This document shows, in pieces, positions 1-55,202 of a stretch of 64,000 nt of DNA. Source of the DNA: Polytrichum commune. Taxonomy: Eukaryota; Streptophyta; Polytrichopsida; Polytrichales; Polytrichaceae. Location: positions 6,946,501-7,010,500 of the forward strand of contig OX485808.1 in NCBI GenBank assembly GCA_950295325.1, given 5' to 3'. Both the position numbers and the translations under genes were made by a program. The notes beneath the pieces were generated by a model. The model ran no database searches and had not been told where the DNA came from. It saw only the letters and a program-made list of their open reading frames with translations. Within the stretch, counting starts at the first letter, position 1. Each line of letters starts with the position of its first letter.

Positions 1-545
1 CTTCTACAGTTTTTAGAAATTTTATATTGAAAATAAAGCCCTATAATCAAGACTAGAGCAAAAATTTGAGAATTTTTGAGCTCTATGACCGCGGTTTTCA
101 CTGAAAACTTGAAAGTTTTAGAACACAATTTTTATTAAAGGGGCCTATATCCATGACAATTCCTGGGAGCTCAAGATACTTTGTATGATCAAGAAGGTCA
201 CCATTACTTCAATCACTGCTACATAGAGGGCTCGACACTGCTTCTAAATCAAAGTAGCGTAGAACTCGAGGGTCAACATGATTCTTAGGAGTGAAGAAGG
301 ATGTCGAATTCCTAGAGCTACCATGGGCATACGCCAAGGCCATGGCTTCAGCATATACAGGTAAGCCACGAGGACTTGGGGGCGGCGACGGAAAGTACCA
401 AGTTGAAGGTGGAGTTCGTAGCGGTCTCCCTGAATTTGTCAAACTGCCATGTTCAGAGCAAGATTTAGAGATGGACAAAGGATGGATTACAAGTAAGAGA
501 TAAATAGAAAATAATATCAACCAACGAAGGGGTGGACTTACTTAC

Positions 546-1550
546 ATATATCGTGCAAAAGGGCATCTGGAATGGCCTCGTCATCATCACTCAGGTCGCC
601 CGCAGTAGAGAAAGTCGAAGCATTTGGAGGTGGAACTGCCAGGGGTTCAAGGACTTCAGAAAAGAGCATAGAGTCGCTCTCTAAAGCCAGAATGTGGCGA
701 TTACATGCACGGGCTGCGCGAATAGTAGCTCCAAGAGAAATGGGATAAATTAGGACATGAAACATGGTATGAAAATTAAAAGTAAAAAAGGAAAGAGAAG
801 TGGGTATGAGGTACCTGTGGAAGCGGTTAGATCGGCGACAATACCATCTGGAGGAGATAATCCATGCACAAAGAGTTTCATGAGAACATCCGATTTCTCC
901 TTCGGCCTCGCCATGGCGAACCATCGCTTTTACGAATTAGCTGGGTCTCGGATGTGACAGGATTGAAGAGGACATCATCACACGCTAAGTCCACCTGAGG
1001 GACTGAAGGGTCTGGAGTGATCGTGAGGATCTTTGGCTGCCTAGCCTCAGAAGTAGGGACAGATCTGACTATAAGAATAGCCTTGAACCTCAAAGTCTGC
1101 AAAGGTAAATCAAATAATCAGCTAAGTCTTAAGAAGAAAAATCGGAAGAGAAGAAAAAACTTAGTTAAAATAGTAGGAAAGAGAGAAGGACAAGAAACAA
1201 ACATTTTTGGCTGGCACGAGGAGATTGGCAAGGTGCAAATAATTGATGATGGTCCACTCGTCAAGAACCTTCATATTGTAATTCTTGAAAAATGATGAAA
1301 TCTCCTTGCGAACCATGGGACTGTCGGGGTAGAAAAGAATGAAGGCTCCATCGTCATGCAAGTAGGAATATGCAAATCCCATGGTCACTTTAAGAAAAAT
1401 ATCGGAGTATTCATTCCAAGGTGGGATATGAGACGGGGGATTAGAAACTCCAGGAATTCTCTGCCCGTCAGGGTACTCAGCAATAAGCAAGTCCACTGTA
1501 GGTTTCTGAATGAGTTTGCCATCAAAGTAGAAGTGGCGTCCAGTGCCAAC
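546..1550 (-). other. Methyltransferase-like C-terminal exons (beta-class motif order)
   Basis: Three exons with good borders (1550 to about 1194, 1096-815, 728-546). The first encodes GTGRHFYFDG...VDLLIAEYPDGQ, placed where N4/N6 methylases carry (D/S/N)PP(Y/F/W), then FLKVTMGFAYSYLHDDGAFILFY, a typical strand-helix after motif IV. The last two join to give GIVADLTASTATIRAARACN followed by RHILALESD, which aligns with the AdoMet-binding FxGxGTT...AA...R...IE-D segment. Catalytic motif before AdoMet motif is the beta-class (N4-cytosine-like) order. Both signature motifs are degenerate (EYPDG, LTASTAT), so activity is doubtful even without the frameshift near 910. Confidence 0.5.
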
Positions 1551-3352
1551 CTAAACCGGAGAGGAATGTAAGTCCTGGGAGTTCCGAGCTAGAACTTGAC
1601 ATTGAAAAAATGCCACAAAAATCCAACTACCAACCTACAACATGACATTGAAAAAATGAAAGCAATACTGTAGTGAATTGGAAAATTAGGGGGAGACCTT
1701 GTTCAGAAAGTAAACAATGTCTTCGTAGTTGGTGTTGAACTTTCCAGTGATTGTCTTCTCCTCCACAATACGAACAAAATAATCATTCATAAGAAGTTGC
1801 TGAGAAGTATATGCGGTTGACAATGCAACAGCCTTCACCTTCATGGGATGACGCTTAGGGGGAGACAAGAACGTGGTGGCGGTACTGGAATCCGGGACAT
1901 CAACTTTCTGGCGCTTCGTAATTGGCTCTGCTAGAAGTACTGAAGGACTCGGAGGTGATGCAGGAAGTCTAGACGCACTTGAAGCAAGTGCAGCATCTGC
2001 TGCAGAGAAGAGGGGCGGCGTCCCAACCGGGGAAGTGGCCCTCTGAACCTGATCAGAAACGGGAGCCTTCTTCTGCCTCGGTTGCCTCTTGGATTTTGAG
2101 GCCGGCCGTTGACTGGCAAGCATCTCAAGCGGAGTGTCGACGGTATCCGAGGGAGTCCCAGTTCGAAGGGAAGGTGGTTGGATGGAGTCTCGAAGAACAA
2201 TGTCAAACGAAGGGGCCTTCGAAGCTGGGCAGTCAAGATACCACCCACATCGCTCCCAGTGCACAGAATCCCATGATTTCGTGATCCCCTCAGTGAGCAT
2301 GAAATCCTCACTATCTCACTCCAAGAAATTAACAAAGAAGGGAGGGGATCTAGAGATTAGCCTTGGAGGGGAAAATGACATATTTGAAGTACCGGTACAG
2401 GACACGGTGTAATGCTGGCTTGAACAAGTACTGCTTGTCGATAGTGTTGTTCTTGTTCACTCCTTTCTCCACTGCAAATTCGCGGAAGAATGCCGTGTCC
2501 TATAATGATATGCGAATCTGCTCAATATAATAAAAAAAGGTTGGAATTGGATCCCGGCCATTAGGTTGATAGTTAATGGTGGCCTTTTGATCACGCAGGA
2601 CACCATCGAGAAGCTTTTGTGCTTCCACTGCCAACTGCATAGCACGACAAAGGAGTTATGAAAAAAGAAGATAACAAATTTGCAATGGCCTAGCAATGAA
2701 AGTTCAAAAGCAAAAAAACAATTTTTGAGAACTCAACAAAGAGGGCAGGTGGAGAATCACATACTTGAGCCCACCATGTTGCCTTATTCAACCAAGTTTA
2801 AAAGGCGTCATCGTTGAAACCTTGCTTGGGGAATTTCAGTTGCACCCGAAGACTTGGAGGCTGATTCCAGCGCTCAAGCCAAAGTACCTTCATGGAAGGA
2901 TCCATGGCAGACACAGCCAACATCCACAACTTCTCTAACTTCATCTCAACACCGTCATCACGACACTCATAATGAGTCTTCACTTCGGCAAGAAAAGTAG
3001 GAGTGTTCTGAGGATCAGCAATTGGTAAGATCTTCTTCAACTCACTTTTAAAATGCACCTTGGCACGTGTAACCGCCTTGCCAACGATGTCATCAACGCG
3101 TTGAGATGTCCAGTCCTCAGGGTTTGGATATCGATCATAAAATTTCCGCTCTGCAGATGCAGCAACCACTCTAATTTCTTGCTGAGACATTTGAAAAGCA
3201 AGGAATTAGTATATTAGCAATGCGAAAATATAGAGGAAATTAAAAGTGGGAATGAAACCATAGGAAGAGTATGAAAACAATTGAACCTGGTAGAGTATGG
3301 AGGTGAACGATGCAGTTGTAAGGGTGAACCAAATTTTGGTTTTAGGATTCTT

Positions 3353-5344
3353 CAGGGTTGTCTATTGTGTCGTGACGGAGGGTAATTCCGGCATAATGTC
3401 GTGCCGTCACGACACGTATCCGTCACGACATTATGCCGGATGCTGTCTTTATCTTGACGGACTTGAATTTTACCGATTTTTTTGTGTAATTACATTAACC
3501 CAATTCAGACACGTAGGATTTACAATGTCCACGTGTGATGACATGTCAGCAAAGTAAAGGTAAAGTGGGGAAAAATTTACTAGAGCCCGTCCGCCCCCCC
3601 ATCCGCCCCTGTTCCCGACCCCGTCCGCTCCGTTCCCAACCCCGTACGCCCCGTTCCCCCCCCCCCGTCCGCGCCCCGTTTCCCCCCCCCCCTTCCCCGT
3701 CCGCCCCATTTAAAAAAAAAATTCCCCCCCCCCCGTCCGCGGCCCGTTCCCCCCCGTCCGCCCCTCCGTCCGCTCCCCCGTCTGCCCCAGTTTTTTTTTT
3801 TTTTTTTTTTTTCCCCCCCCTTCCCTGTCCGCCCCATTTAAAAAAAAAAATTCCCCCCCCCTCCGTCCGCCCCCGTTCCCGACCCCGTCCGCTCCCGTTC
3901 CCCCCCGTCCGCGCCCCGTTCCCCCCCGTCCGCTCCCCCGTCCGCCCCAGTTTTTTTTTTTTTTTGTTTTCCCCTTCCCCGTCCGCCCCAATTTTTTTAA
4001 AAAAAAATTCCCCCCCCTCCGTCCGCTCCCGTTCCCCCCCTGTCCGCCCCGTTCCCAACCCCTCCGCCCCGTTCCCCCCCGTCCGCGCCCTGTTCCCCCC
4101 CCGTCCGCTCCGTTCCCCCCCCCCCCCCGTCCGCCCCAGTTTTTTTTTTTTTTCCCCCCCCCCCCCTTCCCCGTCCGCCCCATTTTAAAAAAAAAATTTC
4201 CCCCCCTCCGTCCGCTCCCGTTCCCCCCCGTCCGCGCCCCGTTCCCCCCCGTCCGCGCCCCGTTCCCCCCCGTCCGCGCCCCGTTCCCCCCCCCGTCCGC
4301 CCCCGTTCCCCCCCCCGTCCGCTCCGTTCCCCCCCCCCCCCTTCCCCGTCCGCCCCATTTTTAAAAAAAAATTCCCCCCCTCCGTCCGCTCCTGTTCCCC
4401 CTCGTTCCCGACCCCGTCCGCTCCCGTTCCCCCCCGTCCGCCCCCGTTCCCCCCCCCGTCCGCTCCGTTCCCCCCCCCCCCGTCCGCCCCAGTTTTTTTT
4501 TTTTTTTTTTCCCCCCCCCCCCCTTCCCCGTCCACCCCATTTAAAAAAAAAATTCCCCCCCTCCGTCCGCTCCCGTTCCCCCCCGTCCGCCCCCGTTCCC
4601 GACCCTGTCCGCCCCGTTCCCCCCCCCGTCCGCGCCCCGTTCCCCCCCGTCCGCCCCTCCGTCCGCTCCCGTTCCCCTCCGTCCGCTCCCGTTCCCCCCC
4701 GTCCGCCCCCGTTCCCGACCCTGTCCGCCCCGTTCCCCCCCCCGTCCGCGCCCCGTTCCCCCCCGTCCGCCCCTCCGTCCGCTCCCCCGTCCGCCCCATT
4801 TTTTTTTTTTTAAATTTCCCCCCCCCTCCGTCCGCTCCCGTTCCCCCCCGTCCGCCCCGTTCCCAACCCCGTCCGCCCCGTTCCCCCCCGTCCGCGCCCC
4901 GTTCCCCCCCGTCCGCTCCGTTCCCCCCCCCCCCCCCCCCCGTCCGCTCCCGTTCCCCCCGTCCGCCCCCGTTCCCGACTCCCTCCGCTCCGTTCCCCCC
5001 CCCCCCCGTCCGCTCCGTTCCCCCCCCCACCCCCGTCCGCCCCACCCTCGTCCCCCGTCCGCCCCACACCCTCCTTAGTCGTTTTTTACTACTTTGATTT
5101 TAACAAAATGGTAAACAAAATGGCAAAATGATTTACCTGGCGCTAGGCATATCCACGACCACGTCGGCGTTTTCTGCCACATAGGACGCCACCTTGGCAA
5201 GAAGGTAAGTATTTTACCCACCCTAGTCCGTTCCCCCTATGTTGACCCTACGTGGACCCTATTGTGTCGTGACGGAGGGGTCCGTCACGACACGACACGA
5301 CATGACGGCACGACACCGTCATGACGTCGCGATAAACAACCCTG
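3353..5344. mobile_element. Non-autonomous hAT-type element inside a methylase-gene exon
   Basis: The termini are inverted: CAGGGTTGTCTATTG at the left and its near complement ending ACAACCCTG at the right. The element is flanked by an exact 8-bp direct repeat GGATTCTT (3345-3352 and 5345-5352). An 8-bp target duplication with CAGGG ends is the hAT signature. Subterminal regions carry many CGTGACGG/CCGTCACG motifs, including a palindrome at about 3390-3440 (arms TCCGGCATAATGTCGTG) and another at 5266-5290, as expected of transposase-binding repeats. There is no transposase ORF; the interior is GC/AT-homopolymer-rich satellite. Removing the element and one duplication copy restores a continuous reading frame in the host exon. 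Confidence 0.85.
3590..5075. repeat. CCGTCCGCCCC/GTTCCC satellite with poly-A/T interruptions
   Basis: About 1.5 kb built from variants of CCGTCCGCCCC, CCGTCCGCTCC and GTTCCC, with long C runs. Roughly seven higher-order units are marked by a T run, then TTCCCCGTCCGCCCCATTT, then an A run and TTCCCCCC (A runs near 3711, 3840, 4000, 4186, 4362, 4543 and 4810). All six-frame ORFs here are low-complexity artefacts. It forms the body of the hAT element. Confidence 0.9.
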
Positions 5345-5583
5345 GGATTCTTCTGTTTTGTCTCAACAGCTTGAACATCATCTTGAGACACCAAAGACTT
5401 GAAGAACTCCAATGGCTATTTGGCAAGACTCTGAGTGCGGTAGAGCCGATGCACAAGGTTTGCAACTACATGTGAATTTTTATTTCTCCTAGGTGGCAGA
5501 AAATCAAGATTAAATGAGAGATGAGGTACCATGACAAAAATGAGATGAAATCAAGAGAGCATGTGATTGCAATGAGAACATAC

Positions 5584-6127
5584 CAGTTGACCTCATGTAA
5601 GGCAGTGAGCATGGATACAACATCCCCATTCACAACGAGAATAATGCTCTCGACCGTATAATGCCAAGAAATGTCATCCACGTGGTCATTGTTGATAATT
5701 GGCATCCAAGCTTGGATGCGGTGGTTGCCATCCCAAACATGGAACATCTTCCCACAAAAGACTTGGAGAGCTGGATCGGCGGTTAGCATGGCCTCAAATT
5801 CGTTGTTCACTGTCACCCAATGTTGACTCCAAGTGGAAATGATCTCTGCGGAAACATCTGAAGTTTTGCCTTCATTGTCCTCCAGGGCAACATAAAAAAT
5901 ACCATTACCTTCCATTTAACCGTTCTTCTGGAAATGCGAAGCCAACTTAAGGACATCATTCTTAAGGAAGGGACGGACCACGGGAAGACAAACCATTCGA
6001 CATAGAGGAATGAAGATCTTGGACTTGTTCTTCGGTTGAAATCTAAGTCCCTCAATCCTGGATTTGGTGCTGGGAATCTCATTAGAGACCATGATATGGA
6101 GCTTCGAGCGAGCATCTATTGGATTGT
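5584..6127 (-). other. ParB/sulfiredoxin-like domain exon of the broken gene
   Basis: The exon is bounded by an acceptor (cattttcag before ACAATCC) and a donor (AACTG before GTATGT). The peptide contains KNDVLKLASHFQKNG, resembling the ParB 'sub-optimal helix then G' segment, and later GKMFHVWDGNHRIQAWMPI, matching the DGHHR-type nucleotide-binding signature of ParB/Srx folds. One TAA at 5916-5918 interrupts the frame between these halves. In bacteria this domain binds DNA or a nucleotide, or acts as a nuclease; in ParB-methylase fusions it precedes the methylase domain, as here. The alternative is an unrelated domain with a chance DGNHR. Confidence 0.45.
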
Positions 6128-6399
6128 CTGAAAATGAAGGCAAATTCATCAGATATTGCATGAGATATTACATGAGATTTTTGCCTCAAGAGAATGCGAC
6201 ATGTATATCAGCAGTCCAGAAAGCAATACGTGAATACAGAGCCAAAATCGTGAGTGAATGTTTATTTTGAAAATCCCACTAATGAGTTAATAGTAAACAA
6301 CAAATTGAACAGAAGACAGCCAGGTTTGGACTCGTGACCGACGTAGAACGTACCACCGGCAGGCTCACCCGAAGAAGTTGAGGAAGCGCACAATGCCAT

Positions 6400-7215
6400 A
6401 TCAGTCAATAAAAGTCATAATAAAATTGTGTGCAAACAAAATGAACTCGATTTCTAAAATATCAGAAGAAGAGAGGCATTTGACTACATGGTGAATGACC
6501 CCTAACAATGTACGCACTTCATAATCGACAAGGTTCATTCATGAAATTGGAATGCAATACCAAACATCATGAAATTGGAATGAATAAATAAACCCCACAA
6601 AGCAATGTGGAATGCACCTTCTCCACCATCTCCACCATCTCCTGGACTCATAACACTCGCTTGAATTTAAACAAGTTCAACACAATGCCACCTTTAGCTC
6701 ATGTCAGAAGCACCCACATTTGAATGAGGTACCTCAAGTGATGGTGAGATGATGAGGTTTGAAATGAATTGGAAGGGGAAATTGCGAAATGTGGATAAAA
6801 GTATGAAGTGCCCCACTTTAATTATGAGGGAAGAAGTGGTTGGAAAGGATATGTCAGCTTATGGTTCATCCAGTTGGAGGGATTGGTGTACATATATCTG
6901 AACCCAGCCCGGTTAAGAGAGTCAGAAAGTTAAGGAGAGTGGGAGAGACTGTTGACATTAATGACAATGAGCTGGAAAGAGCAAGGCCAAGACACTTATT
7001 GGAAAACACTGCAGATTATAACCAAGGCACAAACACAGCTGGATGTTTGTCTCAAGAAGGGAAGCATCAGACAGATGCTCGGATTTTTATAGACCCGAGT
7101 CATGATGTTGGTTTAGTAGGCCTTCAGGTTGTGAGCCCGTTTGCCTGAGGCATGCCGGGTCGTGATGTGACATACTGCCAAACTGCACCTCCCGAACTGC
7201 ACCTCCCGAACTCAC
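6400..7215. other. Spacer upstream of the broken methylase gene
   Basis: No gene is supported. A + strand open frame to 7148 has no ATG near its start, no recognisable domain and no splice context. Short direct repeats of CTGCACCTCCCGAA occur at 7182-7210. Confidence 0.4.
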
Positions 7216-7318
7216 TTGTAGGGAGAGAGAGATAGAGAGAGGAAGAGAGGGAGAGAGGGAGAGGGAGAGAGGGAGAGAATGAGAATGAGGGAGAGAGAAA
7301 GAGAGAGAGAGAGGGAGA
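7216..7318. repeat. GA-rich microsatellite
   Basis: Nearly pure purine tract of GAGAGG/GAGAGA units. ORFs across it on either strand are low complexity. Confidence 0.9.
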
Positions 7319-7394
7319 ACGAGGGTCTGTAAACCCTCGGCCAGCAGCCACCGAACTCACCGAACTCACCGAACTTACCTGTAGCATACATTCA

Positions 7395-7655
7395 AAGGAT
7401 CAAAAAGCAACGTCGCTATGAACGTTTGGCTGCCACAAACCAGTTATCCCTATGGTAACTTTTCTGACACCTCTAGCTTCAAATTCCGAAAGACTAAAGG
7501 ATCGATAGGCCATGCATTCACAGTTTGTATTCGTATTGAAAATCAAAATCAAATGAGCTTTTACCCTTTTGTTCCACACGAGATTTTTGTTCTCGTTGAG
7601 CTCATCTTAGGACAGATGTGCCGCCCCAGCCAAACCCACCTGAGAATGTCTTCCA
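7395..7655 (-). rRNA. Fragment of 25S rRNA (pseudogene)
   Basis: The reverse complement closely matches the domain V region of plant 25S rRNA as I remember it, including GATCCTTTAGTCTTTCGGAA, TTACCATAGGGATAACTGG, GAACAAAAGGGTAAAAGCTC and GTCCTAAGATGAGCTCAACG. It begins at GGATCAAAAAGCAACG and ends in CAGGTGGGTTTGGCTGG. Relative to the standard sequence about 19 nt appear lost between two TGT copies just before CCTAAGATG. Only about 260 nt are present, embedded in GA repeats, so it is a dead insertion and not an rDNA unit. Confidence 0.85.
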
Positions 7656-7679
7656 CCTGGATCGGCCAAACTCCCCACC

Positions 7680-7896
7680 TCACACTGAAAACCCTCGGCC
7701 GGCACCGGCTGGGGTGCCTAGGCCAGAGAGAGGGAGAGAGCGAGAGAGGAAGAGAGAGAGGGAGAGCGAGAGGGAGAGGTAGAGAGAGGGAGAGAGGACA
7801 CTAAAAACCCTCGGCCGGCACCGGCTGGGGTGCCTAGGCCAGAGAGAGGAAGAGAGGGAGAGGGAGAGAGAGATAGAGAGAACGAGGGAGAGAGAC
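7680..7896. repeat. GA microsatellite alternating with CGGCCGGCACCGGC modules
   Basis: Two copies of a module reading CCCTCGGCCGGCACCGG then CTGGGGTGCCTAGGCC (near 7690 and 7810), each followed by GAGAGAGG tracts. The same GGCACCGGC core appears at 8220 and in the 117-bp tandem repeat, so the modules are related. Confidence 0.8.
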
Positions 7897-7903
7897 AATG
7901 TTT

Positions 7904-8102
7904 GGGGACATTTTTAGGCATGACCGGTTGAAATCCTAGTGTTTGCAAGTCCAGCCGGTTATATGTTGACATCATCCTGTTAAATTGGGGTATATTCTAT
8001 AAATTCCTCTAAAATGATCGGTAATTTTCCTACAGTCTTGAACTTCAACCGGTTATTTCTCAAACTCAACCGGTTATTTGTAACTAACTGCCGGTTCTCC
8101 CC
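7904..8102. mobile_element. CCGGTT-rich MITE, copy 1
   Basis: About 200 bp from GGGGACATTTTTAGGCATGA to GCCGGTTCTCCCC. Ends are short inverted repeats (GGGGA / TCCCC). The interior carries several AACCGGTTA motifs and the block CCTCTAAAATGATCGGTAAT. Homologous copies lie at 24318, 37883 and 60521. Confidence 0.75.
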
Positions 8103-8107
8103 GATCA

Positions 8108-8205
8108 TTGGAGAGAGAGAGAGAGAGAGAGAGGTAGAGAGAGGGAGAGAGAGAGAGGTAGAGAGAGGGAGAGAGGGAGAGAGGCTGAGGGAGAGTAGGA
8201 AGGGT
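8108..8205. repeat. GA-rich microsatellite
   Basis: GAGAGAGAGG-type tract following the CCGGTT MITE. Confidence 0.9.
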
Positions 8206-8360
8206 CTGTAAAGGGTCGGCCGGCACCGGCAGGGGTGTCTCGGCCAGCAGCTCCCTCAGCCACCGAACTGCCGAACAAAGCTCCCTCAGCTGCCGGTTTA
8301 GGCTGAGGTTTAGGGTTTGGGTTTAGACTATACTATAAGCGATAATTTATCGCGGACGGG

Positions 8361-8539
8361 GAGGCCAGCCAGCACCGGCGGGGTATCTCAGTCACCTGGA
8401 CGTGCGGGGGTATCTCTGTCGCCTGAAAATGAAAAACTAAATTTCGGTTCCTGCAACTACAAAAATTTTGCCACCAAGAGGGCAGCCGGCACCGGCGGGG
8501 TATCTCAGTCACCTGGACGTGCGGGGGTATCTCTGTCGC
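8361..8539. repeat. 117-bp tandem repeat, left part
   Basis: One and a half units. The landmark CACCGGCGGGGTATCTCAGT recurs at 8373 and 8490, exactly 117 bp apart. Each unit also holds GAAAAACTAAATTTCGG and AAAAATTTTGCCACCAAGAG. The array is cut by a solo LTR at 8540. Confidence 0.9.
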
Positions 8540-9999
8540 TGTGAGGCCAAATCCACCACCCTTAAGCGTCCTAGTCCGGGTGATGACTTTGAGAATCACA
8601 TTTATCTATTACAACATTGAACCATGTGCAAGGTAATTTTCATGTTCAAATGAACATATATTGTCTCACTCATTGTGCTTTATTAATGTTGGCCTCTTGG
8701 CTTGTGCTAGAGTTGGCTTTCTCAAGAGTCCAACCCGCGGCTTTAGCCGCACATGCCCTTACGGACATTCCCCTCACTCTTTTGATCGTCACCCCATTTA
8801 TCTTGCCATTGCAAGAGTCCTTCACATTCTCCATTAATAATGCAAGTAAGTTATTTTGAACGATAGGTGCAAGTGTTGAAAAACACTTTACTCTATAGTC
8901 AATGTTACATTCAATCACATGAGACTTCCACACGCCTTGCCTATCCTATCGGGCTTAACACTTGCCTAATAACTATTTTAGTCTACGATTGGTCTAACAC
9001 CCTATTGGGTAGTTTAGTGGCACCCTCCACACAATCTTAGCCTTAGCTTGCTAATCCTACCAACTGTCTAATTAGCCATGGGTACAACTCCCGCCTAGTT
9101 GCCGGCAGCCCCTTGATAGCCTCGGATGCCACAGCTTAATACTCCCCAATCCAGCAGTCTCGGCTACCACAGCTCAATACTTACCCAGTCCAGCAGTCTC
9201 GGCTGCCACAGCTTAAAACTCTCCAAGGCCAGCAGTCTCGGCTGCCACAGCTTAATACTTCCTAAGGTCCTAGTGACTATATGTTAAGTCTATCTACTAG
9301 CTACCCTTAATGCAACCCTTCTCATTCACTAATCAAAGGTTTTTTTTTTGTTTTTCTTTTCTTTTCTTTCTTTTGCTTCTAAGTCATGAGCTAATCTAAC
9401 ACACTACTTTAACTAACTACCACCTAATCACTACATGCAAACTTAAGCTCTAGAGCTCCCTCACGTGGGAGGCCTTGAGAGAGAGAGCCTAACTAATTAA
9501 CTTCACTAAAACTAATGTCACACACACGTGGCTCAAGCTCTTAAGAGCTTGCTCCCTTGAGAGCGCTTGATGGAGAGAGAGAAAAATGAGAGAGAAAACA
9601 CCTTAAGTAGTAAAGAGGGAGAGAGGGAGAGAGAGGTGAGGATAGGGTGAGAGGATTAGCACCTCCAATCACAATCCCTTAACCTTCACCTTCAAAGTAG
9701 GGACTAATCCCCTTCCACCAAGCTTCCTTCTTCCTAAACTACCAAGGTGGATCCAAAAGTGGGCATTTATCCCGCGGAGCTCACCTTGCTTCACCTTACC
9801 CCCTACTCACATTATCAAGGCATACTCTTATTGAATTCATCCTTGAAATAATCACACAACACATTCTAAAGCCTAAACTTAAATCCACACCACACTTCAC
9901 TCTTTTTATGTTTTGTGAATAATCATAATACATCAAAGTCAAACTAAAATTGGTTTCGAAGAGTTAATCACCACATGTGGGCACCATTTTGGGCTCACA
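8540..9999. mobile_element. Solo LTR (1460 bp)
   Basis: Starts TGTGAGGCC and ends GGGCTCACA, so it has TG...CA termini with a 6-bp inverted repeat TGTGAG/CTCACA. It is flanked by an exact 5-bp duplication GTCGC (8535-8539 and 10000-10004). There is no gag-pol coding and no second LTR in the window, hence a solo LTR left by recombination. It lies inside a 117-bp tandem array whose units resume immediately after it. Superfamily is unknown; length would suit Ty3-type as well as others. The interior has a short tandem repeat and poly-T/C tracts near 9340. Confidence 0.85.
9112..9265. repeat. Short tandem repeat within the solo LTR
   Basis: Three to four copies of a unit of about 45 bp containing CAGCAGTCTCGGCTGCCACA followed by GCTTAATACT variants. 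Confidence 0.8.
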
Positions 10000-10205
10000 G
10001 TCGCCTGAAAATGAAAAACTAAATTTCGGTTCTTGCAACTACAAAAATTTTGCCACCAAGAGGGCAGCCGGCACCGGCGGGGTATCTCAGTCACCTGGAC
10101 GTGCGGGGGTAGCTCTGTCGCCTGAAAATGAAAAACTAAATTTCGGTTCCTACAACTACAAAAATTTTGCCACCAAGAGGGCAGCCGGCACCGGCGGGGT
10201 GTCTA
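10000..10205. repeat. 117-bp tandem repeat, right part
   Basis: Continuation of the array after the solo LTR. The same landmark occurs at 10072 and 10189 (117 bp apart). The last unit diverges at GTCTAGAGCGCC. Confidence 0.9.
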
Positions 10206-10648
10206 GAGCGCCTCCGCGCTGAAAGTAAAAAACTGAAACCCTTGTTTGGTTGCTGCACCGACCCAAGAGGAAAAGCACTGCACCTCTGCGCTGCACCTTT
10301 GCGCTGCGACTCAACATGTGAAAACGCGCGCCTGACCATCGCATTCCAATATCGAAAGGCGAGAGGTAGAGTTTCATTAGGGTTTCATCAGGTTTCAATG
10401 CTCACCTGCGATGTCGCCCTCGAGGTTGCGCACCTCCGTCGTCGACGACTCTCCAAGCTGTCTCGATGAACTACCTCTTTGATTGCCCGCGGTGACCTCC
10501 CTGGTGTCCATGGCTGTCGGCGCAGGATTCATCTGCCACAGCTTGCGACCCTTTCAAAAGCTTGACCTTTTCTGTTCTAGGGTTTCCGCTTGCCTAACCC
10601 TCTCAATAGCACCTGCCCGCCCTTCTATCCTCCACAATGCCCGCCCTA

Positions 10649-11013
10649 CTAGCCTTTACAAAACCCTCCAACTCTTCCGTTCCGCTTGCCCCAACTCTTG
10701 TTCTAAAATTTTAAGTTTCGAGACTTACCGAGTCCTCCTCTCTGTCGTCCCTGTCATCGCTCCTTGGGGCATCATGAGCTTCACTGTCGGAGCTTCCCCC
10801 TTCTTGCGTTTCTGGTATGCCTTCTAGTTGGTTCTCCTGTCCTTCATCATTGTAGCTGAGCACCTTCGCAATATCGGTAATGTCACACCTCTCCTCGCTT
10901 GAACGCCTCGTCCGCACCATTTTGTTGCGCTTCAAAGACTTTGCACTTGTAAAGAGGAGACCACGCTTGCGTTTCTTTCTTGAACTCACTCCCAGCATTC
11001 TGATCTCGCTCAC
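10649..11013 (-). CDS. Possible small basic/acidic protein, two exons
   Basis: From ATG at 11013 the frame begins MSEIRMLGVSSRKKRKRG, with a later ATG at 10920 (MVRTRRSSEERC). It is basic at the N-terminus and acidic at the C-terminus (DAPRSDDRDDREEDS). A consensus donor follows TCG at 10729 (GTAAGT); a possible acceptor (attttag) at 10703 gives a 17-codon second exon ending at 10649, so exon sums stay in frame. No family recognised. The basic N-terminus could be a nuclear localisation signal. It could equally be the first exon of a longer gene or a chance frame, since cysteine and hydrophobic content are low. Confidence 0.25.
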
Positions 11014-11540
11014 TACAAATTACTTCAGATTGCTCTTATATGATTTAAAGGTCTACATTTTTGAGCCTTAGAAGACTCTTCTTAAACCCTAAACCCATTT
11101 ATTACATTTCAAAATATACATTTATTACCTGGGAAGATTTTAACGACTACCGAAATCCATCCATTCTCTGAATTATTCCAGCGGGTTTTTAACCATATAT
11201 AGATGAACATGTGGATCATCCATGCTGGACCTAGATACCATGCGTCTGACGTCTACCATTAAACTCGGTTGGCTGCGTTGTATTATAGAGCCTGCGCCGT
11301 CAAAGCCCACGTCTTATTCCACTCAATGTTTGACATGTCAAGTTGTTCATTTCAAGCTGCGGGCAATTAATGCATATCGTTGTTGAGAGTTTCATATTAA
11401 TGCATATCCATTTTTTAATTGCGATTCCTTACCAAGTTTCACAGTAATTATAATTATTTAGGCTGATGTATACTACCACATGATTAGACAAAGTTTGGTA
11501 GCCTGGATTCAGGGTATCCCTAAACCGGTGTTTTGGCGCT

Positions 11541-11547
11541 TATAAAT
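11541..11547 (+). promoter_or_regulatory. Candidate TATA box for the MULE-like gene
   Basis: TATAAAT lies 85 bp upstream of the first ATG (11632) of the long open frame. The frame is open back to 11533 without another ATG, so transcription from this box would make 11632 the natural start. Confidence 0.4.
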
Positions 11548-11631
11548 TTCAGAACTCTTGCTTCAGATCGTCTCTTGAATTCCCTCTTTGATCCAATCTC
11601 TTCTTCTTCCTCCTCTGTTGTTTACGGTTCA

Positions 11632-14600
11632 ATGGCCTTCATTCGTGTTGATTCGCATTTTGTGCCTGTTACGTTTCCTTTGGGTGCGAATGGTTATGCC
11701 ATCGTTAGCTCAACTACGCTTAGTCTGAGGTTCCAATTTCGTGAAGATGCACTGTATGTCGAGGAGGAGGTTTTTGACAATGACTCTGGAATCCTCTTGC
11801 ACGCAATTGGTCAGTTGCATAGTACGAACGATGCCGGTATGTTTTGGTCGCTTAAACCCGGAAAGTATCGAGCATACGGACTTCCTGATTCTGTTATGCC
11901 TGCTTCCACTAAAATACTCACTCCTCGACAGTCGTCCACTGTTAGCATTGATCCCTTCGTTCCTATACAAGTCAAAGTAGAACCTGATCATCATACCATC
12001 CATAACCTCAGTGACGATTCCGATAGTGAGGACGTCCTTGTTTTAGACTCAAATTTGTTTGAGACGAGTACCCCTATACAGCCCTCCGCTTTAGCATTCT
12101 TTCGTGCTGATGATCATCCTGTGCCAGTCACTTTTCCAGTTGGTCCTGCTGGTTATGCCACCGTCAGTGAGCGAAGTCTTGCTCTCCAATTTCTGTTCAA
12201 AAAGGAGTCTGTCCACATTGAGGAAGAAATTTTTGAATCCAAATCCCCTCAAGCTAGTCAAAGTATTGGACAACTCTCTTTCAGGAATGATGACGGGAAG
12301 GTTTGGTTCTTGAAGCCAGGAAAATTTCGGGCCTACGGAATCTCTATTTCTCTCATGGATGCATCTACCGAGTTACTTACTTCCAGAGAGTCGTCCATGT
12401 CATCCGTTCAGACACCATCTCTTAGAAAAGTGAAGATTGAGCCTGGACTCCGTACTATCTATGAATTGAGAGACTCTTGCCCTCTTCCAAATGTCGATGT
12501 CAGCCACATGTTTGAGAAATGTAGCACAAAATATCTACCCAAAGACCCCAATTCACAACCTACTAGCAATTCTACTGGCAATTCTACTAGCAAGTCTACT
12601 AGTGTCATAGATTCACTGAAACAACTTGCATCCAGAAAAAGGTCAAAGAACGTTCTTTCCAAAATCGATTATGATACCATTACAATAGAGAGGGTTGAGT
12701 ACCTCCCACCTACATTTGACGGAGATATCATTTTTGAATTTCCGCCACTCGGCTGTCACGCTAGGCAGACTGTAGCGAAACAACTTCGTGGTATGGACAA
12801 ACGTTTCGATGGCCACTCCTGGACCCGAACTATCACGTCCAACATCTCTAACGATTTTGGTCTCACTTTTCGAACCTCTTCTTGTTTAGGTCATTTGCGG
12901 TGCGATAATGTTGACTGTGAGTTCCTTACTCGAGTACACCGCACCACACCTATTAATGAAACGGAGTGGGAGGGCAACTCATCTTTGCCCTTTGAGTGTG
13001 GTACCGTGCCTCCCAAGGATTCAAGCATCGTCTGTTCCATTTGTAAGGTTTCGCCGAGTTGTGTTGCCTTGTGTCCGGCTAGGATTTATTATGTAGTTGG
13101 ATCAAAATCTATGTCTCGGGCTTGTATTCACTTTGGAATCCATGCCCATCTGGTCAAAATTGGTGATTATCGCGACTCCATTGAGCATACTACCAGCTTC
13201 CTGAGTGAACAAATTCAAAGCACTCCTACAGCTACCAACTCCGCTTTAGTTTTGGAAGCTAGCAAAGACTTAGTTGGAGACATGCTCCTAGCGCCTGAGG
13301 GTTCACAACCAAAATCCCTCTCTGTAGATGACCTCCTGCCTTTGTTTGATCGTTGTAAGCACCTTACTTCGCCTAGCATCCGTAATACTGTATCGGGTTT
13401 CAAATACATCCGTAGATTTGGGGTTATGGATAGCATCACCAAACTTCGTGGGTCAAGCAACTGGCCTTATGTCCAGGAGAACAAGTTTCCAGGCCAAGGA
13501 GCGGAAACTGACAAGGTCTTTGTGTTCAAAATGTCTGAGGTAGGACCGGGTAGTGGAGTCGACCTCGTGAAACGGATGCAAGCTGGTGGAGACCTCGAAA
13601 ACGCCTGGCTCATATTTGACCATGTTAAGCGTGTGCAAAGTTGGACTACAATGGCGTGCCATGTTTATGATGCCACCTTTTGTCGAGTAATGACCATTGC
13701 CGTCTGCGACATGCAGTCCGAGGATACCGCTGCTCAAATTGTGGTTTGGAAAAACCTCAACGCTGTTATGGCTCGCCACAACGTTTCTCAACCAAACTTC
13801 AAAGGGTTTATGGCAGATAGCGCTCAAGCCAATTGGAATGCTATCCGTATTGTCTACGGAAACGGAGATGCATCTATGCCCATGGAAAACAAGGAGAGAA
13901 CGTGCCTCTTTCACTGGATTTAGTCCCTCGAGAAGCACACAAAAGCCTACATTAGACTCAACCTTCAAGATCAGCACCGATTGCTTTGCAAGCAATACAA
14001 GAACGCCAAGACCATTTCTGAAGCTGAAATGCGCTACCTTGCCATTCGCGCGTGGTGGCTTTCGTCCGGTGCCGCATCTGAGGATGCCATATCCCAACTC
14101 GACCTCTGGCTTGCTTTTTGGCATTTCCGCTACCGCCAATGGGGTGGCTTCATGCAATTGGTAAGTTCTTCGCTCAGTGAACGTGTACCCATCCATTGAT
14201 AAAGCAATCGTCAATCGTCTCCTACATGTTTCCTAATCGATTCTTTCTAAACTCCTTCTCCATAGGACTTGAACGAAGTTGGGTTGGCTGAAATGCCTTC
14301 GTGCAATTTGGCCGAGACCGTGCACAATAAGTGGCTCCAACAATCCGGCCACCGTGGTAAGGATCTATATGTTGCAACAGTTGATGACTACGTGCGCGCA
14401 TTTATGCAATGTGTCTCGTACTACCAGTACTTAAAAGGAGATCGTGCTGGTACTGGCCCGTCCAAGGAAGAGCTGAAGTTACGTGCCGCACAACGTTCTT
14501 CGGAGATTACCGGCAACACCAAGTCCCTTCACGAAGCAATGACTAGAATGCCCGGAGCGCAAGAGTTTTGCATCCGCACGCCACACTTAGAAGGTGAAGA

Positions 14601-15759
14601 AGTCTTCCTATCCTTGAAACGGAAGGCTGACCTTCCTCCAAGTTCGGAACTTGACTCTCACCGACCTGACAAGATCTCCATCTCTCGTCCCCAAGTGCAA
14701 ACGCGGTCTTCCATCAAAAACTCTCAAACGGCCTCACCAACCGCTAATTCAGAATCTCTTGAAACGTTTGCAACTCCAATTGCGCCGCAGCAATCGAACG
14801 GCAATACTCGAGTAAGTGATGTCACCCCACTTTCTCTTTTCCAGCATGTTACAGCAGTTCAAGAATCCGCTTGTGACGAAAGTAAGTGGCACATCGCACG
14901 TCTTCCTAAGACGTCTGCAAAGGCTTGCTTTGCTATACAAGCGATGACAAAGAAGAAGTGTGTGGCCCGTATTGTTCAAGACGGGAAGAGTACCGCTGCG
15001 CCAACATACACCGGGATGATGACCAATTACCGAAAGAATAAGCAAGAACTCTTGCAATTCTTCTTTTGTAACGATGATATTGAAAGGTGTGTTAAAGGAA
15101 CTCGCAGGAAGTGGGTTATATCAAGGCCTGAAGTCCCTGAGACTTGGCCTGTCAAGATGGGGACAAACCTTTCCCGCAAGGAGATCCTCCAATTGGAGAC
15201 TGCTGGATTTCGCCTTCCTCAACGACAAGAAATTTCTCCAAGACGATTGTTCCAAGACAACCTCTCCCACGTGGACTTGACTTCGTATATTACTCCGGCA
15301 TCTCCAGATGAGTTTCCCAAGCGCAGGTCCGGGAAGAATATCCGTCGCATGAGTAAGGCCCCTTCCACACGTCACGCCAACAACTGCGCCTCTGCTCTCA
15401 CGTTAAAAGCTTGCATTCGCAACATTAGCATGGTCCTTGCCCCCGCTCTTGGTTGTATTGTTACCTTGGATTCTGGTTCTCCTCCCAATATCCACCAGTA
15501 CCACTTGACTATTTCTCAGCTTCCGGCGTGCACTTGTCACAATTTCAAGGAAATGGCAACCAAGGCACTTGGAAAGCGCGGTCAGTGGGCCAATTGTAAG
15601 CACCTATACTATGTGTTTACGATAATTTGTGGACTTGATCCTAATTCTGATACTTTTATTCATGCTGCTAGTTTTAGCTTTAATGAGGTCAAGCAAATCC
15701 TTCAGAGTGGATTGTTGACCCAGACAACCTCTCAGGCTTTGGATGAAGTACTCTTGTAA
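11632..15759 (+). pseudogene. MULE/SWIM transposase-like gene with one in-frame TAG
   Basis: Exon 1 runs 11632-14160 (donor GTAAGT) and exon 2 runs 14266-15759 (acceptor ccatag); together 1341 codons in one frame, broken only by TAG at 13921-13923 (codon 764). Residues about 1-100 and 154-255 are a duplicated domain (PVTFP..ANGYA...LKPGKYRAYG and its copy). The middle holds Cys/His-rich CLGHLRCDNVDCEFL and ICKVSPSC. Next comes a DDE-like core with VYDATFCRVMTIAVCD, FKGFMADSAQANWNAIR and CLFHW, resembling MULE transposases. The C-terminus has a SWIM-type CTCHNF...CKHLYYVF finger, also usual in MULEs. The TAG replaces the residue after HWI, where CAG (Gln) would be one change away. No terminal inverted repeats were found, so a domesticated gene is possible. 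Family assignment is by motif only. Confidence 0.6.
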
Positions 15760-16390
15760 TTTCATTTCAATCACATCAATGAAATTGAGGTAGTGAGACG
15801 GAAAGGGCCACTACCAAGTGCATTATTTTTATACCGTCACTCTTTAAAAGCGCTACAGTATTGAATTTGAATGGTTTAGTTTTAACACTCATCAATTACT
15901 GTTTCCTTCATTACACAAAATCTTTTGTAAAGATGTTGAGTTCATTGTCTTCTCAGAGAAACGTATGTATGCAACCTCTGTTTTAATCATGAACTAGTGA
16001 GATTAAAAGGGCCACTTCGAGGTATTTGATGTATCAACGTTTTTGTTGACCTCGAAGATTCATTTAATTTTCTTTCTGATAATCTAGAAACCTTAGGTGT
16101 CTGATATCTCCACTTTTCTTGAATTCATCTTCAATCTCGCGGATCTCAAAAGATGCCAATGTAATTTAATTTTGCTGCATAGAAATACTCCACAATGTTT
16201 GTCAATATTGATTTCGACTCCCTAAACCCTAAAAACATCCCAAAAACAACTTTGCAACGATCACTGTGGAGGAATTTTCCACGGGCATAGGTCCCAAAAT
16301 TTACTATAATTGGAAATATATTTGCAAAACATTGATTTTTTTAATATACCCTGCACATTAAATTATTATTTTAACTTAAAAAAGAAAAAC
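15760..16390. other. 3' flank of the MULE-like gene, no gene seen
   Basis: AT-rich sequence with no open frame of note. CTCCCTAAACCCTAAAAACA near 16219 is telomere-like but single. Confidence 0.4.
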
Positions 16391-16394
16391 TTAT

Positions 16395-19300
16395 CGCTCA
16401 CTGCTCACTGCTCGCAAAATAGCGTCGCTCCCATATGATCTATTCGGAATTGAAGCATTCTCACTACAAAATGCATACCTACGCTGTATTGGAGAACAAC
16501 TACAAAACGCCCTCAATGACAAAGGTAGACTTGGCAAAATTTATTATGGCTTGACACAATTTATACTTACTAAATTTGGAGGTTCCAAAGAAATAACCCG
16601 CATTAAATACCATCATTGCGTTAGATTACCTATCACTAGAACGTTATTCTTACTCAAACATGAAGTTGGAGTCCACCTAAAAAACACAATAGATACATTT
16701 CTATTAAACTCGTCCCCACTCGAAACCGCATGGTTGAAAAAAACACAAAATCTACAAAGCCTAAATCCCAACACTTGACTTAAACTATTACAAAAACTTC
16801 TATTGCATAATATAATAAAATTAGAACAAATAACCATGCCCAATGGTGCCACCTTAATAAACCCAGATGACTTTAAACTATACCACTCCAACCCTACAAA
16901 ATTCATAAAGAATGCATTAAACATCGCAAACCAATTATTCTGCCGCCCTTCCTATCACCAAGAATGTTCACTCCCATGCCCACACCACTACCCTCCACGA
17001 ACCCTAAAAAATGACTTCACAATAATAAACCACAACATCCTTCTTCAACACCCCCCGAACCCCCGGTCCCCCATCTACCCCAACCTCCCAATAATATGCT
17101 TAAAAATCTCCGTCAATTTCTCATACACACAATACTTGACCATAAACAACGACAACTCACAAATTCTAATGGGATAAAAAGAAAAGACACATCATATCTA
17201 TGCCATTGAATTACTCCAAATAATAACACATACAACAAATGGCGTACCCAAAGATATTTATTTCCCTATTGTGACGCATATACTAGTCGTCACAACACCG
17301 AACTACTTACCCAATATTATATGAAAAGACAACACAAACACTTCTCAAACATCATCAATGCATACTTTTCCATAGAACAACAACGAGACACTAGATACGT
17401 TATCCCTGCCACAATTATCCCATTGGCACATATCTCCATTAATGAATGCAACCCAGAGAGTGACATCGAAACAAATACTAACACTATTCAAACACAATTC
17501 GACGTCGCTCACATATATGAAGACAACGGTCGGCACCTCATTACCATCCCAGAAACCATATTACTGTGGTTATGGAAACAATATCATCAAGCTAAAGATA
17601 CCCCACATAGCCTAGAACCACCTACCCAATCATTTGAAACAGAAATCATGTGGCTATGCCAAAGGTATAAATACCGTATTCCTAAAAACGACCCACTTAA
17701 ATGTGCCCAATATACAATACCAACTCCAATACTAGATTTCCTAATAACATCATTCAATATCAACCATTCATACTTCTCATCCCCAGTTACTTGTCCCACA
17801 CAATTCACCCAATTCCACTCACCATTATCTAGGGATAGAATATTTGGATCCCTAGGAAAAGCGTTTGACCAAAAATGAAAGGGAATTGATTACGCCCACC
17901 TCCATAACGCAACAGACTTACAACAAGCCATTCATTGGGTCCGCATTGCGGCCAAAAACGATCCAAATATAATCACTATACTTATTTCAAAAGATATTGA
18001 TTGGTGCCATAATTTTAACCCATACACTGGCCCATTCTTGGACACACACATCATTGCCCACTTTGCAGCAGACACCATCATATACGAAGAACCCACAACT
18101 CCCCCCGAACTCAATATCACGAGAAAATAATTATCAACATTACGAATATTTTGTATCCACCACCAAAACAATCACATCGGTACCTACGAACAAATGAATC
18201 AACTCACCAACATAGCAAATAACCTCCAAATATTACAAATTCACACACAAATTGCACCATCCACCCCCGTAAATACCGCATTTAACCCTAGCAAAAAATG
18301 GGCTAAATCTAACTATCCAAACACACCCGTAAATAATAACATACCTATTCCACAACTCCCAAATTACCAAACTAACTTACCACTAAAATTCTACCCCCAA
18401 TTCAGCTACTACACAAACGGCTCTTTTATGAAACCCAAAGAAATTAACCTTGGAGAATGGAGAAGAGAAAGAGCCGGCTATGGAAGCTATAGCCCCAAGG
18501 GCCTTAACATCTCCAAAAGACTATATGGACACCAAAACATACTACGAGCAGAAATGATAGCAATACATGAAACACTAACAACCATTAATACACTATATCC
18601 AAACGAACCCGTATACATATTTACCAATAGTCTAAACGTATTATACTTACTCAACATACAAATTAAACACCCCACACTTCACAATAGCCACCCCGACCAA
18701 ATTACCCTCGCCACCATGGTACAACTACTTCAAAACCGGACACAACCAATCACACTATACAAAGTTAGAGCACACGTCAACATTGACGGCAACAAACAAG
18801 CAGACAAATTGGCAAAAGAAGGGCTAGAACTAGAGCACAGAATTGCCATTCACCCATATGAGCATGCCCATGCCACCCCATACTACTACCAAAAGGACGT
18901 TTGGGCCTCAATGACGGACGTTCCTGATAAAGGCCCCGTTAGATTCCTAGAAAAACAAATTATTAAATACGATAGGAAAAACAACTTGGAAAACATGGCC
19001 ACACAAACCCCCAACACTTACAAATGAACAGGAAATGTAGATATAGATAAAGAACTTTCTAACGAATTCTGGGAAAACCTGGAAATCACGGATAAACAAA
19101 AATCATGCCTCATCAAATTCCGAACATGAACCTATATGGGCAATGCTCGAAAACAACTGTTCTTCGGTAGACAAACATATCCCTCTATTACATGCCCCAT
19201 TTGCACCTCATACGAACCGGACACGTGGTTACATGTACTACTTACGTGTAAACAACAACATATACATTCACTCCACGTCAAAAGACACAACAAAGCAGTA

Positions 19301-54600: not shown

Positions 54601-55202
54601 TGCCTATTCAATAGTAAAACATGAGAAAAGTGAACAGGAAAATACTGAAGGGGCTGATGAGAGAAGAGTGGAACCTGAGGTATCGGCAACACCGCCACAA
54701 AGTCGAGCCAGAAATCTTTCCTCATATACCGAGCCCCGATTTTTTTGAGATTGGTCTCAAGAGCGCCGCGTCCAAATACACGAGATGATGGCGCAATATA
54801 TGCCGTTCGGAACTGGAGAAACATGTGAACCAAGTATAAAAAGTCGGTGGTGGTCCGGAAGACGGTGACCGAGATTTTAAGCTTGGTGGAAATTTTGATG
54901 CAATTTAGGGAATTGTCGACAACCGGTAGATAGAAGAAGAGTGGATCAACAAAGACAGCCACCAAGCACGAAGCGACAAAAAAAGTATTCCACCGGTGCA
55001 ATGACGGGCTTGACGGGTCCAGATAATTTTGATTCTCCTGCTTCGCAACCGCCTCGTCAAAAACCCGCGCCGAGTTCCTGAACTTCAAGGACTGACCCAA
55101 CCTGAAAAAACCCCTCGAGCTCTTTTCCCATCCCCGCCGCACAGCCGATTGTGAGTTGATGCTAAAAGACTTTCGAAGTGGCATCTCACATTCAGAACCC
55201 AT
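48645..55202 (-). CDS. Cyclic-nucleotide-gated ion channel (CNGC), seven coding exons
   Basis: Exons 55202-54675, 53938-53726, 52499-52183, 51965-51854, 51159-50923, 50325-49931 and 48945-48645 join at GT-AG borders to exactly 701 codons. It is a plasma-membrane cation channel of the plant CNGC family. S1 is near residues 72-93 (FVASCLVAVFVDPLFFYLPV); S2-S3 include YIAPSSRVFGRG; S4-S5 are LLRIFPL...AWAGAAFNLLLYLLASH. The pore reads GLLALSSLTQTLSVSTF (residues 347-363). The C-linker has LRLEEMRVKRRDTEQWM; the CNBD cassette is GDFCGEELLTWAL (538-550); the IQ motif IQAAWRRYQRRR starts at 615, so calmodulin binding is likely. An acceptor lies 37 bases before this ATG (exon begins 55239), so a 5' exon exists; it may be UTR or add residues. 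Only the pore triplet T-Q-T is unusual. Introns hold dispersed repeats. Confidence 0.9.
49290..49795. repeat. Dispersed repeat in the last CNGC intron
   Basis: A segment with ATTTTGAGCACATAGTCCAA, TAATTGGAGGGACCTGTGAC and AAGACCCATCTACCTTAGG. Diverged relatives occur at about 20230-20640, 22440-22650, 46800-47215, 50590-50800, 52730-52900, 54250-54600 and 55440-55760, in both orientations. Ends CCTAAGGTA.. / ..TACCTTAGG suggest a TIR element, related in its ends to the element at 24504. Confidence 0.6.

What the first reader, a model, noticed from the sequence alone, without database searches (positions are those of the whole stretch)
209..6399. ParB-like plus N4/N6 methylase-like fusion in a plant genome
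Seen: a DGNHR-containing N-terminal exon, a basic linker with NLS-like strings, and C-terminal exons in beta-class methylase motif order, all on one strand with GT-AG introns. Known: ParB-methylase fusions occur in phages and bacteria, and bacterial-type N4-cytosine methyltransferases have been reported in Marchantia and bdelloid rotifers. Inference: this is a relic of a horizontally acquired, intron-bearing nuclear DNA modification family that may still have active members elsewhere in this genome.
Basis: partly seen in the sequence, partly recalled or inferred. Interest (0 to 1): 0.82.

Follow-up and report, generated by a model that had tools for sequence, protein, structure and literature searches.

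The report
Plant transposon carries methylase-like helper gene
The split gene is a decayed copy of the second gene of a very abundant, apparently plant, jumping element; it encodes a helper protein with a methylase-like end whose catalytic motif is consistently altered yet kept by selection, so it probably grips the element's DNA rather than methylating it.

Summary
In detail: on the minus strand (6399 to 209) lie nine exons with GT-AG introns, a DGNHR exon, basic linkers and an amino-methyltransferase-like C-terminus. It is not a lone acquired host gene but gene 2 of a 14-16 kb DNA transposon with imperfect inverted ends and perfect 10-bp target duplications in 3 of 3 copies checked. Gene 1, divergent, is transposase-like without a significant Pfam match. 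Each gene-2 exon searched has roughly a thousand candidates in the genome, only 150 scored. Of 150 scored transposase hits, 61 have a divergent gene-2 exon nearest, within 20 kb (random 1.3). Methylase relationship: firm at family level. ParB relationship: motif-level only. Motif IV (DPPY) reads D/E-x-P-D/E in 21 of 22 rows, yet deeper pairs show purifying selection. The window copy is dead; 2 of 6 copies tested are open over eight exons. ParB-methylase accessory genes are already reported in algal transposons (PMC12477816); this is a variant, probably non-methylating.

The parts
1..16430 (.). DNA transposon, window copy, 16,470 bp; its left terminus lies 40 bases outside the window at G000:C6:6946461
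   Evidence: Matches with two other copies end at the same points; perfect 10-bp duplications in 3 of 3 copies
16395..16430 (-). Terminal inverted repeat at the transposase end: GAGCGACGCTATTTTGCGAG followed by AGTGAGC heptamers (read from the right end inwards)
   Evidence: partner GAGGAATGCTATTCTGTGAG + GGTGAGC-type heptamers lies left of the window; heptamer number differs between the three copies
16431..16440 (-). 10-bp target duplication GATCATATGG
   Evidence: identical to the other flank, outside the window
11524..13923 (+). Gene 1, transposase-like frame 1 (799 codons; ends at a TAG that for instance the copy at C3:16443948 lacks)
   Evidence: homologue 50.6% identical over 630 aa in another subfamily
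14266..15759 (+). Gene 1, transposase-like frame 2 (497 codons) with SWIM-like CxC...CxH
6354..6399 (-). Gene 2 exon 1 (start ATG)
5584..6127 (-). Gene 2 exon 2, ParB-like by motif only (GNHR); in-frame TAA at 5916-5918 in this copy
   Evidence: 25 relatives aligned
3287..5488 (-). Gene 2 exon 3, split by the insertion (202 bp in sister copies)
3354..5344 (.). 1,991-bp C/T-rich insertion with short inverted ends AGGGTTGT/ACAACCCT and 9-bp duplication GGATTCTTC
2765..3181 (-). Gene 2 exon 4
1698..2634 (-). Gene 2 exon 5, with basic NLS-like linker
1203..1550 (-). Gene 2 exon 6, methylase-like part with altered motif IV (AEYPDG)
815..1096 (-). Gene 2 exon 7, up to the motif I region (DLTAS)
546..728 (-). 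Gene 2 exon 8 (TIRAARACNRHILALESD)
209..429 (-). Gene 2 exon 9 (last exon; end inferred from the stop and from likeness by eye to a frame of L020)

Best explanation
SHOWN: the feature is a decayed copy of gene 2 of a high-copy DNA transposon with inverted ends and 10-bp target duplications; gene 1 is a divergent transposase-like gene. In open sister copies gene 2 reads as one protein of about 1,060 residues (986 codons over eight exons plus an inferred last exon). INFERRED: its N-terminal GNHR domain, basic linkers and C-terminal amino-methyltransferase fold bind the element's own DNA; likely sites are the heptamer arrays in the ends and the tandem repeats between the genes. Because catalytic motif IV is replaced by D/E-x-P-D/E while the domain is kept by selection, it most likely acts as a DNA-binding protein that does not methylate (or does so with changed chemistry), shielding or de-repressing the element or helping it move, in the way VANC proteins of Arabidopsis VANDAL elements act.
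For: Perfect 10-bp duplications in 3 of 3 copies. Terminal 21-mer found 28 times (up to 2 mismatches), reversed control 0. Of 150 scored transposase hits, 61 have a divergent gene-2 exon as nearest listed hit within 20 kb, 4 same-strand, 4 convergent, 81 none; random placement 1.26, 2.51, 1.31 (358 gene-2 positions given). Same two-gene layout in a second subfamily, transposase about 50% identical. Methylase homology: (score 71.0; best of 100 column shuffles 21.7). Motif IV fourth place acidic in 21 of 22 rows. dN/dS: DGNHR exon median 0.16 for pairs with dS 0.1-1.5; methylase exon 0.20-0.22 between two subgroups at dS 0.32-0.37, and 0.26-2.2 among pairs with dS under 0.05, the usual transposon pattern. 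Two of six copies open over eight exons. Parallel: VANC targets often form tandem repeats in their own elements (PMC5735166, passages).
Against: No binding or activity data. The ParB part fails every profile test; the fold prediction was useless (mean pLDDT 31.5, single sequence). The 22-bp palindrome arrays of one subfamily are absent from the window subfamily's inter-gene region, so no shared target motif was found. No VANC-type domain in the spliced L012 protein. For the methylase exon one pair of the young subfamily has dN/dS 0.84 at dS 0.15, and cross-subfamily pairs with dS above 1.1 range from 0.13 to 0.87 with saturated dS, so selection there rests mainly on one comparison of two subgroups.
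Confidence: 0.55

Rival explanations
1. Active self-methylating accessory enzyme: gene 2 binds the transposon and deposits N4-methylcytosine or N6-methyladenine on it despite a variant motif IV, as proposed for algal transposon ParB-methylase proteins.
For: Methylase profile match over the whole domain in L025; a motif I-like D-x-x-A-G-T-G is kept in several subfamilies; the Ectocarpus paper suggests binding and modification of the element's own sequence.
Against: DPPY-type motif replaced in all but one of 22 rows; in bdelloid N4CMT, changing SPPY to APPA abolishes 4mC addition (PMC8885841, passages). The window clade seems to lose a motif I glycine after splicing.
Confidence: 0.2
2. Transposition cofactor: gene 2 is a structural partner of the transposase (end binding, target choice or nicking), with no role in silencing.
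For: Pairing and divergent layout with the transposase; purifying selection; a prokaryotic ParB-methylase with nicking activity is described (PMC5512222, passages).
Against: Nothing specific; the ParB identity itself is unproven here.
Confidence: 0.25
3. Relic of a horizontally acquired host DNA-modification gene, merely spread by repeats.
For: Bacterial-type domain with introns; dead window copy.
Against: Copies share transposon termini and pair with a transposase in two subfamilies. No search was made that could single out a host orthologue; with only the best 150 hits scored, none stood out.
Confidence: 0.03
4. The N-terminal domain is not ParB/sulfiredoxin-like at all; GNHR is convergent, and only the C-terminus is of prokaryotic type.
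For: Profile comparison scores below at least ten of 100 shuffled controls; no PF02195 match in the large contigs; no solved-structure match.
Against: Conserved R-containing box, GY motif and GNHR (24 of 25 rows); the literature reports a ParB-like domain plus methylase in a transposon protein of similar size, 1104 aa.
Confidence: 0.3

Closest known systems
ParB-like + N4/N6 methyltransferase accessory gene of Sola1-1_Ec32 in Ectocarpus (PMC12477816, passages seen), with green and red algal cases cited there (Iyer 2011 and Petroll 2025, not held, not read)
   Same: [quoted passage not shown] similar length (1104 aa against about 1,060); methylase domain of the same class
   Different: Here an apparently plant genome, 10-bp target duplications, a transposase without significant Pfam match, about a thousand candidate hits, altered motif IV; ParB part only motif-level. 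No sequence comparison with the algal protein was possible, so its motif IV is unknown to me
VANC anti-silencing proteins of Arabidopsis VANDAL elements (PMC5735166, abstract and passages seen)
   Same: Accessory gene of a DNA transposon; the element carries variable tandem repeats in non-coding parts
   Different: No VANC domain found in the spliced L012 protein; anti-silencing not tested here
Bacterial/phage ParB-N6_N4 methylase fusions (for example on contigs C10 and C12 of the same assembly)
   Same: Methylase domain, motif order IV then I
   Different: Canonical DPPY, short linker, detectable ParB profile
Bdelloid N4CMT (PMC8885841, abstract and passages seen) and the Marchantia 4mC methylase mentioned there
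   Same: Bacterial-type amino-methyltransferase in a eukaryote
   Different: N4CMT is described there as a captured gene with SPPY motif acting on transposons; this is a transposon's own gene with an altered motif

Membership tests
N6_N4 amino-methyltransferase fold (PF01555) | Profile match over the domain | tested here: met
   Paralogue L025: 34.4 bits (cut-off 26.7), positions 1-216 of 221; family profile of 11 rows against 60 bacterial rows 96.5%. Against: L026 and L027 no match, L029 15.3 bits; spliced window-type piece none, L020 and L021 pieces 16.3 and 18.2 bits, below cut-off; whole L012 protein none
N6_N4 amino-methyltransferase, active enzyme | Catalytic motif IV [DNS]PP[YFW] (recalled form; SPPY/DPPY/NPPY) | tested here: not met
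   D/E-[YILV]-P-D/E in 21 of 22 rows with the motif, 24 rows examined; L025 has Y; rows come from roughly ten subfamilies and several are near-identical. The two rows without it: L031 reads ADISEN and Y reads ADIPEN in its preceding frame
N6_N4 amino-methyltransferase, active enzyme | SAM-binding motif I (DPFxGxGT type) | tested here: inconclusive
   D-x-x-A/V-[GS]-T/V-G in several subfamilies, KASKG-like in L023, shortened in the window clade if the AG before exon 8 is used
ParB/sulfiredoxin superfamily | Profile match (PF02195 or bacterial ParB-methylase N-domain) | tested here: not met
   0 of 4 PF02195 matches lie in the seven large contigs; 0 of 4 DGNHR exon rows match it; hhalign 0.2-0.5%, score 11.8, ten best of 100 shuffles 16.3-23.5
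ParB/sulfiredoxin superfamily | G-x-x-R motif | tested here: met
   GNHR in 24 of 25 aligned rows; weak by itself
ParB/sulfiredoxin superfamily | Alpha+beta fold | tested here: inconclusive
   Single-sequence prediction, mean pLDDT 31.5
ParB-methylase transposon accessory genes (Ectocarpus type) | Encoded in a DNA transposon opposite to the transposase | tested here: met
ParB-methylase transposon accessory genes (Ectocarpus type) | Sequence homology to the algal proteins | not testable with these tools
   No algal sequences in the held collections
Mutator-like element (MULE) | 8-11 bp target duplication (recalled range) | tested here: met
   10 bp in 3 of 3 copies
Mutator-like element (MULE) | PF10551 transposase domain | tested here: not met
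   No PF10551 match for gene 1 pieces at E up to 10; window transposase not among the 142 PF10551 matches, 150 of 271 candidates scored
Sola-1 | 4-bp target duplication (recalled) | tested here: not met
   10 bp found
KDZ | PF18758 transposase domain | tested here: inconclusive
   No match in the genome, but none in the 14 control genomes either
VANC | DUF1985 or DUF287 domains | tested here: not met
   Spliced L012 protein (eight exons): only an insignificant Dicty_REP match, E 0.16

The most novel reading that the evidence does not exclude
A land-plant transposon superfamily, with a transposase outside known families, has turned a bacterial ParB-methylase into a conserved pseudo-methyltransferase that recognises parS-like or heptamer repeat arrays on its own element and blocks host DNA methylation there without modifying DNA. 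In one young subfamily, 32 and 50 near-exact copies of the 22-bp palindrome GAGGCCTCGGATCCGAGGCCTC between the two genes would be its landing array.
Probability: 0.15. Interest if true: 0.82.

Novelty: new variant of a known kind. Interest (0 to 1): 0.56.

Why it matters
ParB-methylase accessory genes were reported in algal transposons with the suggestion that they modify their own element. Here is an abundant, apparently plant system with recent copies, in which the methylase part shows selection although its catalytic motif is changed in every subfamily sampled. That makes the question 'writer or mere binder?' directly testable. If it is an anti-silencing binder, it is an independent counterpart of VANC and a possible sequence-specific epigenome tool.

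Tried and rejected
Host acquired gene: rejected (termini, duplications, pairing with a transposase). Relatives in viral contigs: two alignment scans, 104 and 53 pattern stretches, none confirmed. Relatives in phage records: none by tblastn. PDB by sequence: for the DGNHR exon one match at E 1.3; for the methylase two DpnA-type sequences at E 0.064 and 0.072 among 16 listed, the rest chance-like (mostly cytokine receptor gamma). PHROGs: weak DNA-methyltransferase matches for L025 (best E 0.0033) and none of use for the DGNHR exon. ParB by profile: negative, also after widening the family alignment to 25 rows. AlphaFold2 of the window DGNHR exon alone: unusable, so no fold search was run. Palindrome as a general target: not found in the window subfamily. 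Gene-1 superfamily: Pfam none for the window pieces, and for sister pieces only FERM_M (E 0.041) and XRN_M (E 0.032), below cut-off; NCBIfam none for the sister pieces (window pieces not scanned there). Ends of the young subfamily: a candidate left end was seen inside another transposase copy, but I saw no matching target duplication, so its element length is open.

Rows dropped: 49 of 109 bacterial methylase domain rows under 180 residues, pairs with 120 or fewer codons or incomputable dS (49 pairs kept), pairs under 70 codons.

Literature: ten searches of the held library; in their listings I saw no land-plant transposon case. The library is partial and two key sources were not held.
Full report
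WHAT IS THERE. Read on the minus strand, gene 2 starts at 6399 and ends at about 209. Eight exons (6399-6354, 6127-5584, 5488-3287, 3181-2765, 2634-1698, 1550-1203, 1096-815, 728-546) have GT after them and, from the second on, AG before them in the window copy; a ninth (from 429) is placed by likeness, by eye, to a frame of L020. Exon 3 is split by a 1,991-bp C/T-rich insertion flanked by GGATTCTTC and absent from 6 of 6 copies compared. With several in-frame stops and frame changes as well, the window copy is dead. Spliced at the same sites, 2 of 6 copies tested (L012, L014) are open across eight exons, 986 codons; L011, L015, L013 and the window copy are broken or interrupted.

IT IS A TRANSPOSON GENE. 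Comparing the window with copies on C1 and C3 shows a unit of 14,031, 14,280 and 16,470 bp with matched ends and perfect, different 10-bp flanking duplications (GTTTAGGACT, GAAATACCTA, GATCATATGG). The ends are imperfect inverted repeats (GAGCGACGCTATTTTGCGAG / GAGGAATGCTATTCTGTGAG) followed by GGTGAGC/AGTGAGC heptamers whose number varies between the three copies. The gene-2-side terminus occurs 28 times in the genome with up to 2 mismatches, its reversed control 0 times. On the plus strand lies gene 1 (11524-13923 and 14266-15759), transposase-like by eye, with a CxC...CxH motif but without a significant Pfam match. Its superfamily is unassigned: the 10-bp duplication fits Mutator-like elements (recalled range), the PF10551 test does not.

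COPY NUMBER AND PAIRING. First-look candidates were 1073 (DGNHR exon, window query), 1326 (query from another subfamily), 1075 (methylase exon) and 1449 (transposase); only 150 of each were scored, so these counts are rough. Of 150 transposase hits, 61 have a gene-2 exon as nearest listed hit within 20 kb in divergent orientation, 4 same-strand, 4 convergent and 81 none; 200 random placements average 1.26, 2.51 and 1.31. The gene-2 list held 358 positions, not all hits. For the first 22 DGNHR hits (window clade), 15 are divergent, 2 convergent, 5 without a listed transposase within 20 kb. A second subfamily on C1 has a transposase 50.6% identical over 630 aa, also divergent from gene 2, and a terminus found 121 times with up to 3 mismatches (reversed control 0), 72 of the 100 places listed being perfect.

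DOMAINS. Methylase: PF01555 matches paralogue L025 at 34.4 bits over positions 1-216; L029 gives 15.3 bits, L026 and L027 none. The family profile (11 rows) aligns to 60 bacterial enzyme rows with probability 96.5%, score 71.0, over the motif I region, against a maximum of 21.7 in 100 column shuffles. The window-type piece alone has no match, nor has the whole L012 protein, so the claim rests on the family. ParB: PF02195 matched only contigs C10, C12 and C23. C10 and C12, 47 and 61 kb, carry ordinary bacterial/phage ParB-methylase fusions and are probably contaminants; C23 was not examined. Profile comparison with bacterial ParB N-domains is negative. What remains is a conserved pattern, an R-containing box, a GY motif and GNHR (24 of 25 rows), and the published precedent.

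CATALYSIS AND SELECTION. Motif IV is [DE]-[YILV]-P-[DE]-[GND] in 21 of 22 rows where it was located (24 rows examined, roughly ten subfamilies, several rows near-identical); L025 alone has Y. The bacterial form is DPPY, for example in L040. Pairwise dN/dS of the DGNHR exon has a median of 0.16 for dS between 0.1 and 1.5 (0.06-0.42 among the 15 pairs printed). The methylase exon gives 0.20-0.22 between the L026 and L028 groups, while pairs with dS under 0.05 give 0.26-2.2: selection while moving, decay after insertion. Against this, the one pair of the young subfamily gives 0.84 at dS 0.15, and cross-subfamily pairs with dS above 1.1 scatter from 0.13 to 0.87 with saturated dS. I infer a maintained but probably non-methylating domain.

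HOW IT LIKELY WORKS. Shown: paired genes, common mobility, selection on the DGNHR exon and, less broadly, on the methylase exon. Inferred: the protein enters the nucleus (basic strings), binds repeats of its own element and protects or activates it. The nearest functional model is VANC, whose targets often form tandem repeats in its own element (PMC5735166, passages). In one young subfamily, 32 and 50 copies (up to 2 mismatches) of a 22-bp palindrome lie between the genes or upstream of gene 2; the window subfamily's inter-gene region shows no such array, so this is a lead only.

PRIOR ART. The Ectocarpus study describes a 1104-aa ParB-like plus N4/N6-methyltransferase protein encoded opposite the transposase of a 21.5-kb Sola-1 element and cites green and red algal cases (PMC12477816, passages). 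So the kind is known. What is new here, as far as ten searches of a partial library can tell, is the apparently plant host, the different transposase, the scale and the conserved altered motif IV (whether the algal proteins share that change I could not check).

ORGANISM. The genome is 408 Mb, of which the seven largest contigs seen hold about 406 Mb (contig lengths). A window frame at 54573-55451 looks by eye like a plant cyclic-nucleotide-gated channel. A moss with seven chromosomes is my guess from recall.

CHANGES AFTER CHECKING. The element's left terminus is 40, not 39, bases outside the window; the Pfam statement on gene 1, the dN/dS ranges and several negative results were made exact.

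Noticed in passing
L142 (G000:C4:30640001-30649900) and L140/L144 (G000:C1:28020331-28040330): Young subfamily: 50 and 32 near-exact copies of the 22-bp palindrome GAGGCCTCGGATCCGAGGCCTC, in L142 inside 96-, 127- and 307-bp tandem repeats, between the two divergent genes.
   Followed up: partly
L036 (G000:C10:12601-16000): Bacterial-type contig with a ParB-methylase fusion that by eye carries an intein-like insert within the methylase part; probably contaminant DNA in the assembly.
   Followed up: no
L002 (G000:C12:28182-31778): Phage-like contig in the same assembly with a 443-aa ParB-methylase (DPPY) next to a frame that by eye resembles uracil-DNA-glycosylase/polymerase proteins; probably contaminant.
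   Followed up: partly
window 3354-5344: C/T-rich insertion (CCCGTCCGC repeats) with AGGGTTGT/ACAACCCT ends and a 9-bp duplication, itself looking like a small mobile element.
   Followed up: partly
window 29659-30852: 397-codon frame resembling a pogo/Tigger-type DDE transposase by eye.
   Followed up: no
window 54573-55451: Frame resembling by eye part of a plant cyclic-nucleotide-gated channel.
   Followed up: no
L025 (G000:C1:9660501-9664500): Paralogous subfamily with the methylase part in a single frame; this copy has DIPY where the two sisters read (L024, L033) have DIPD.
   Followed up: partly
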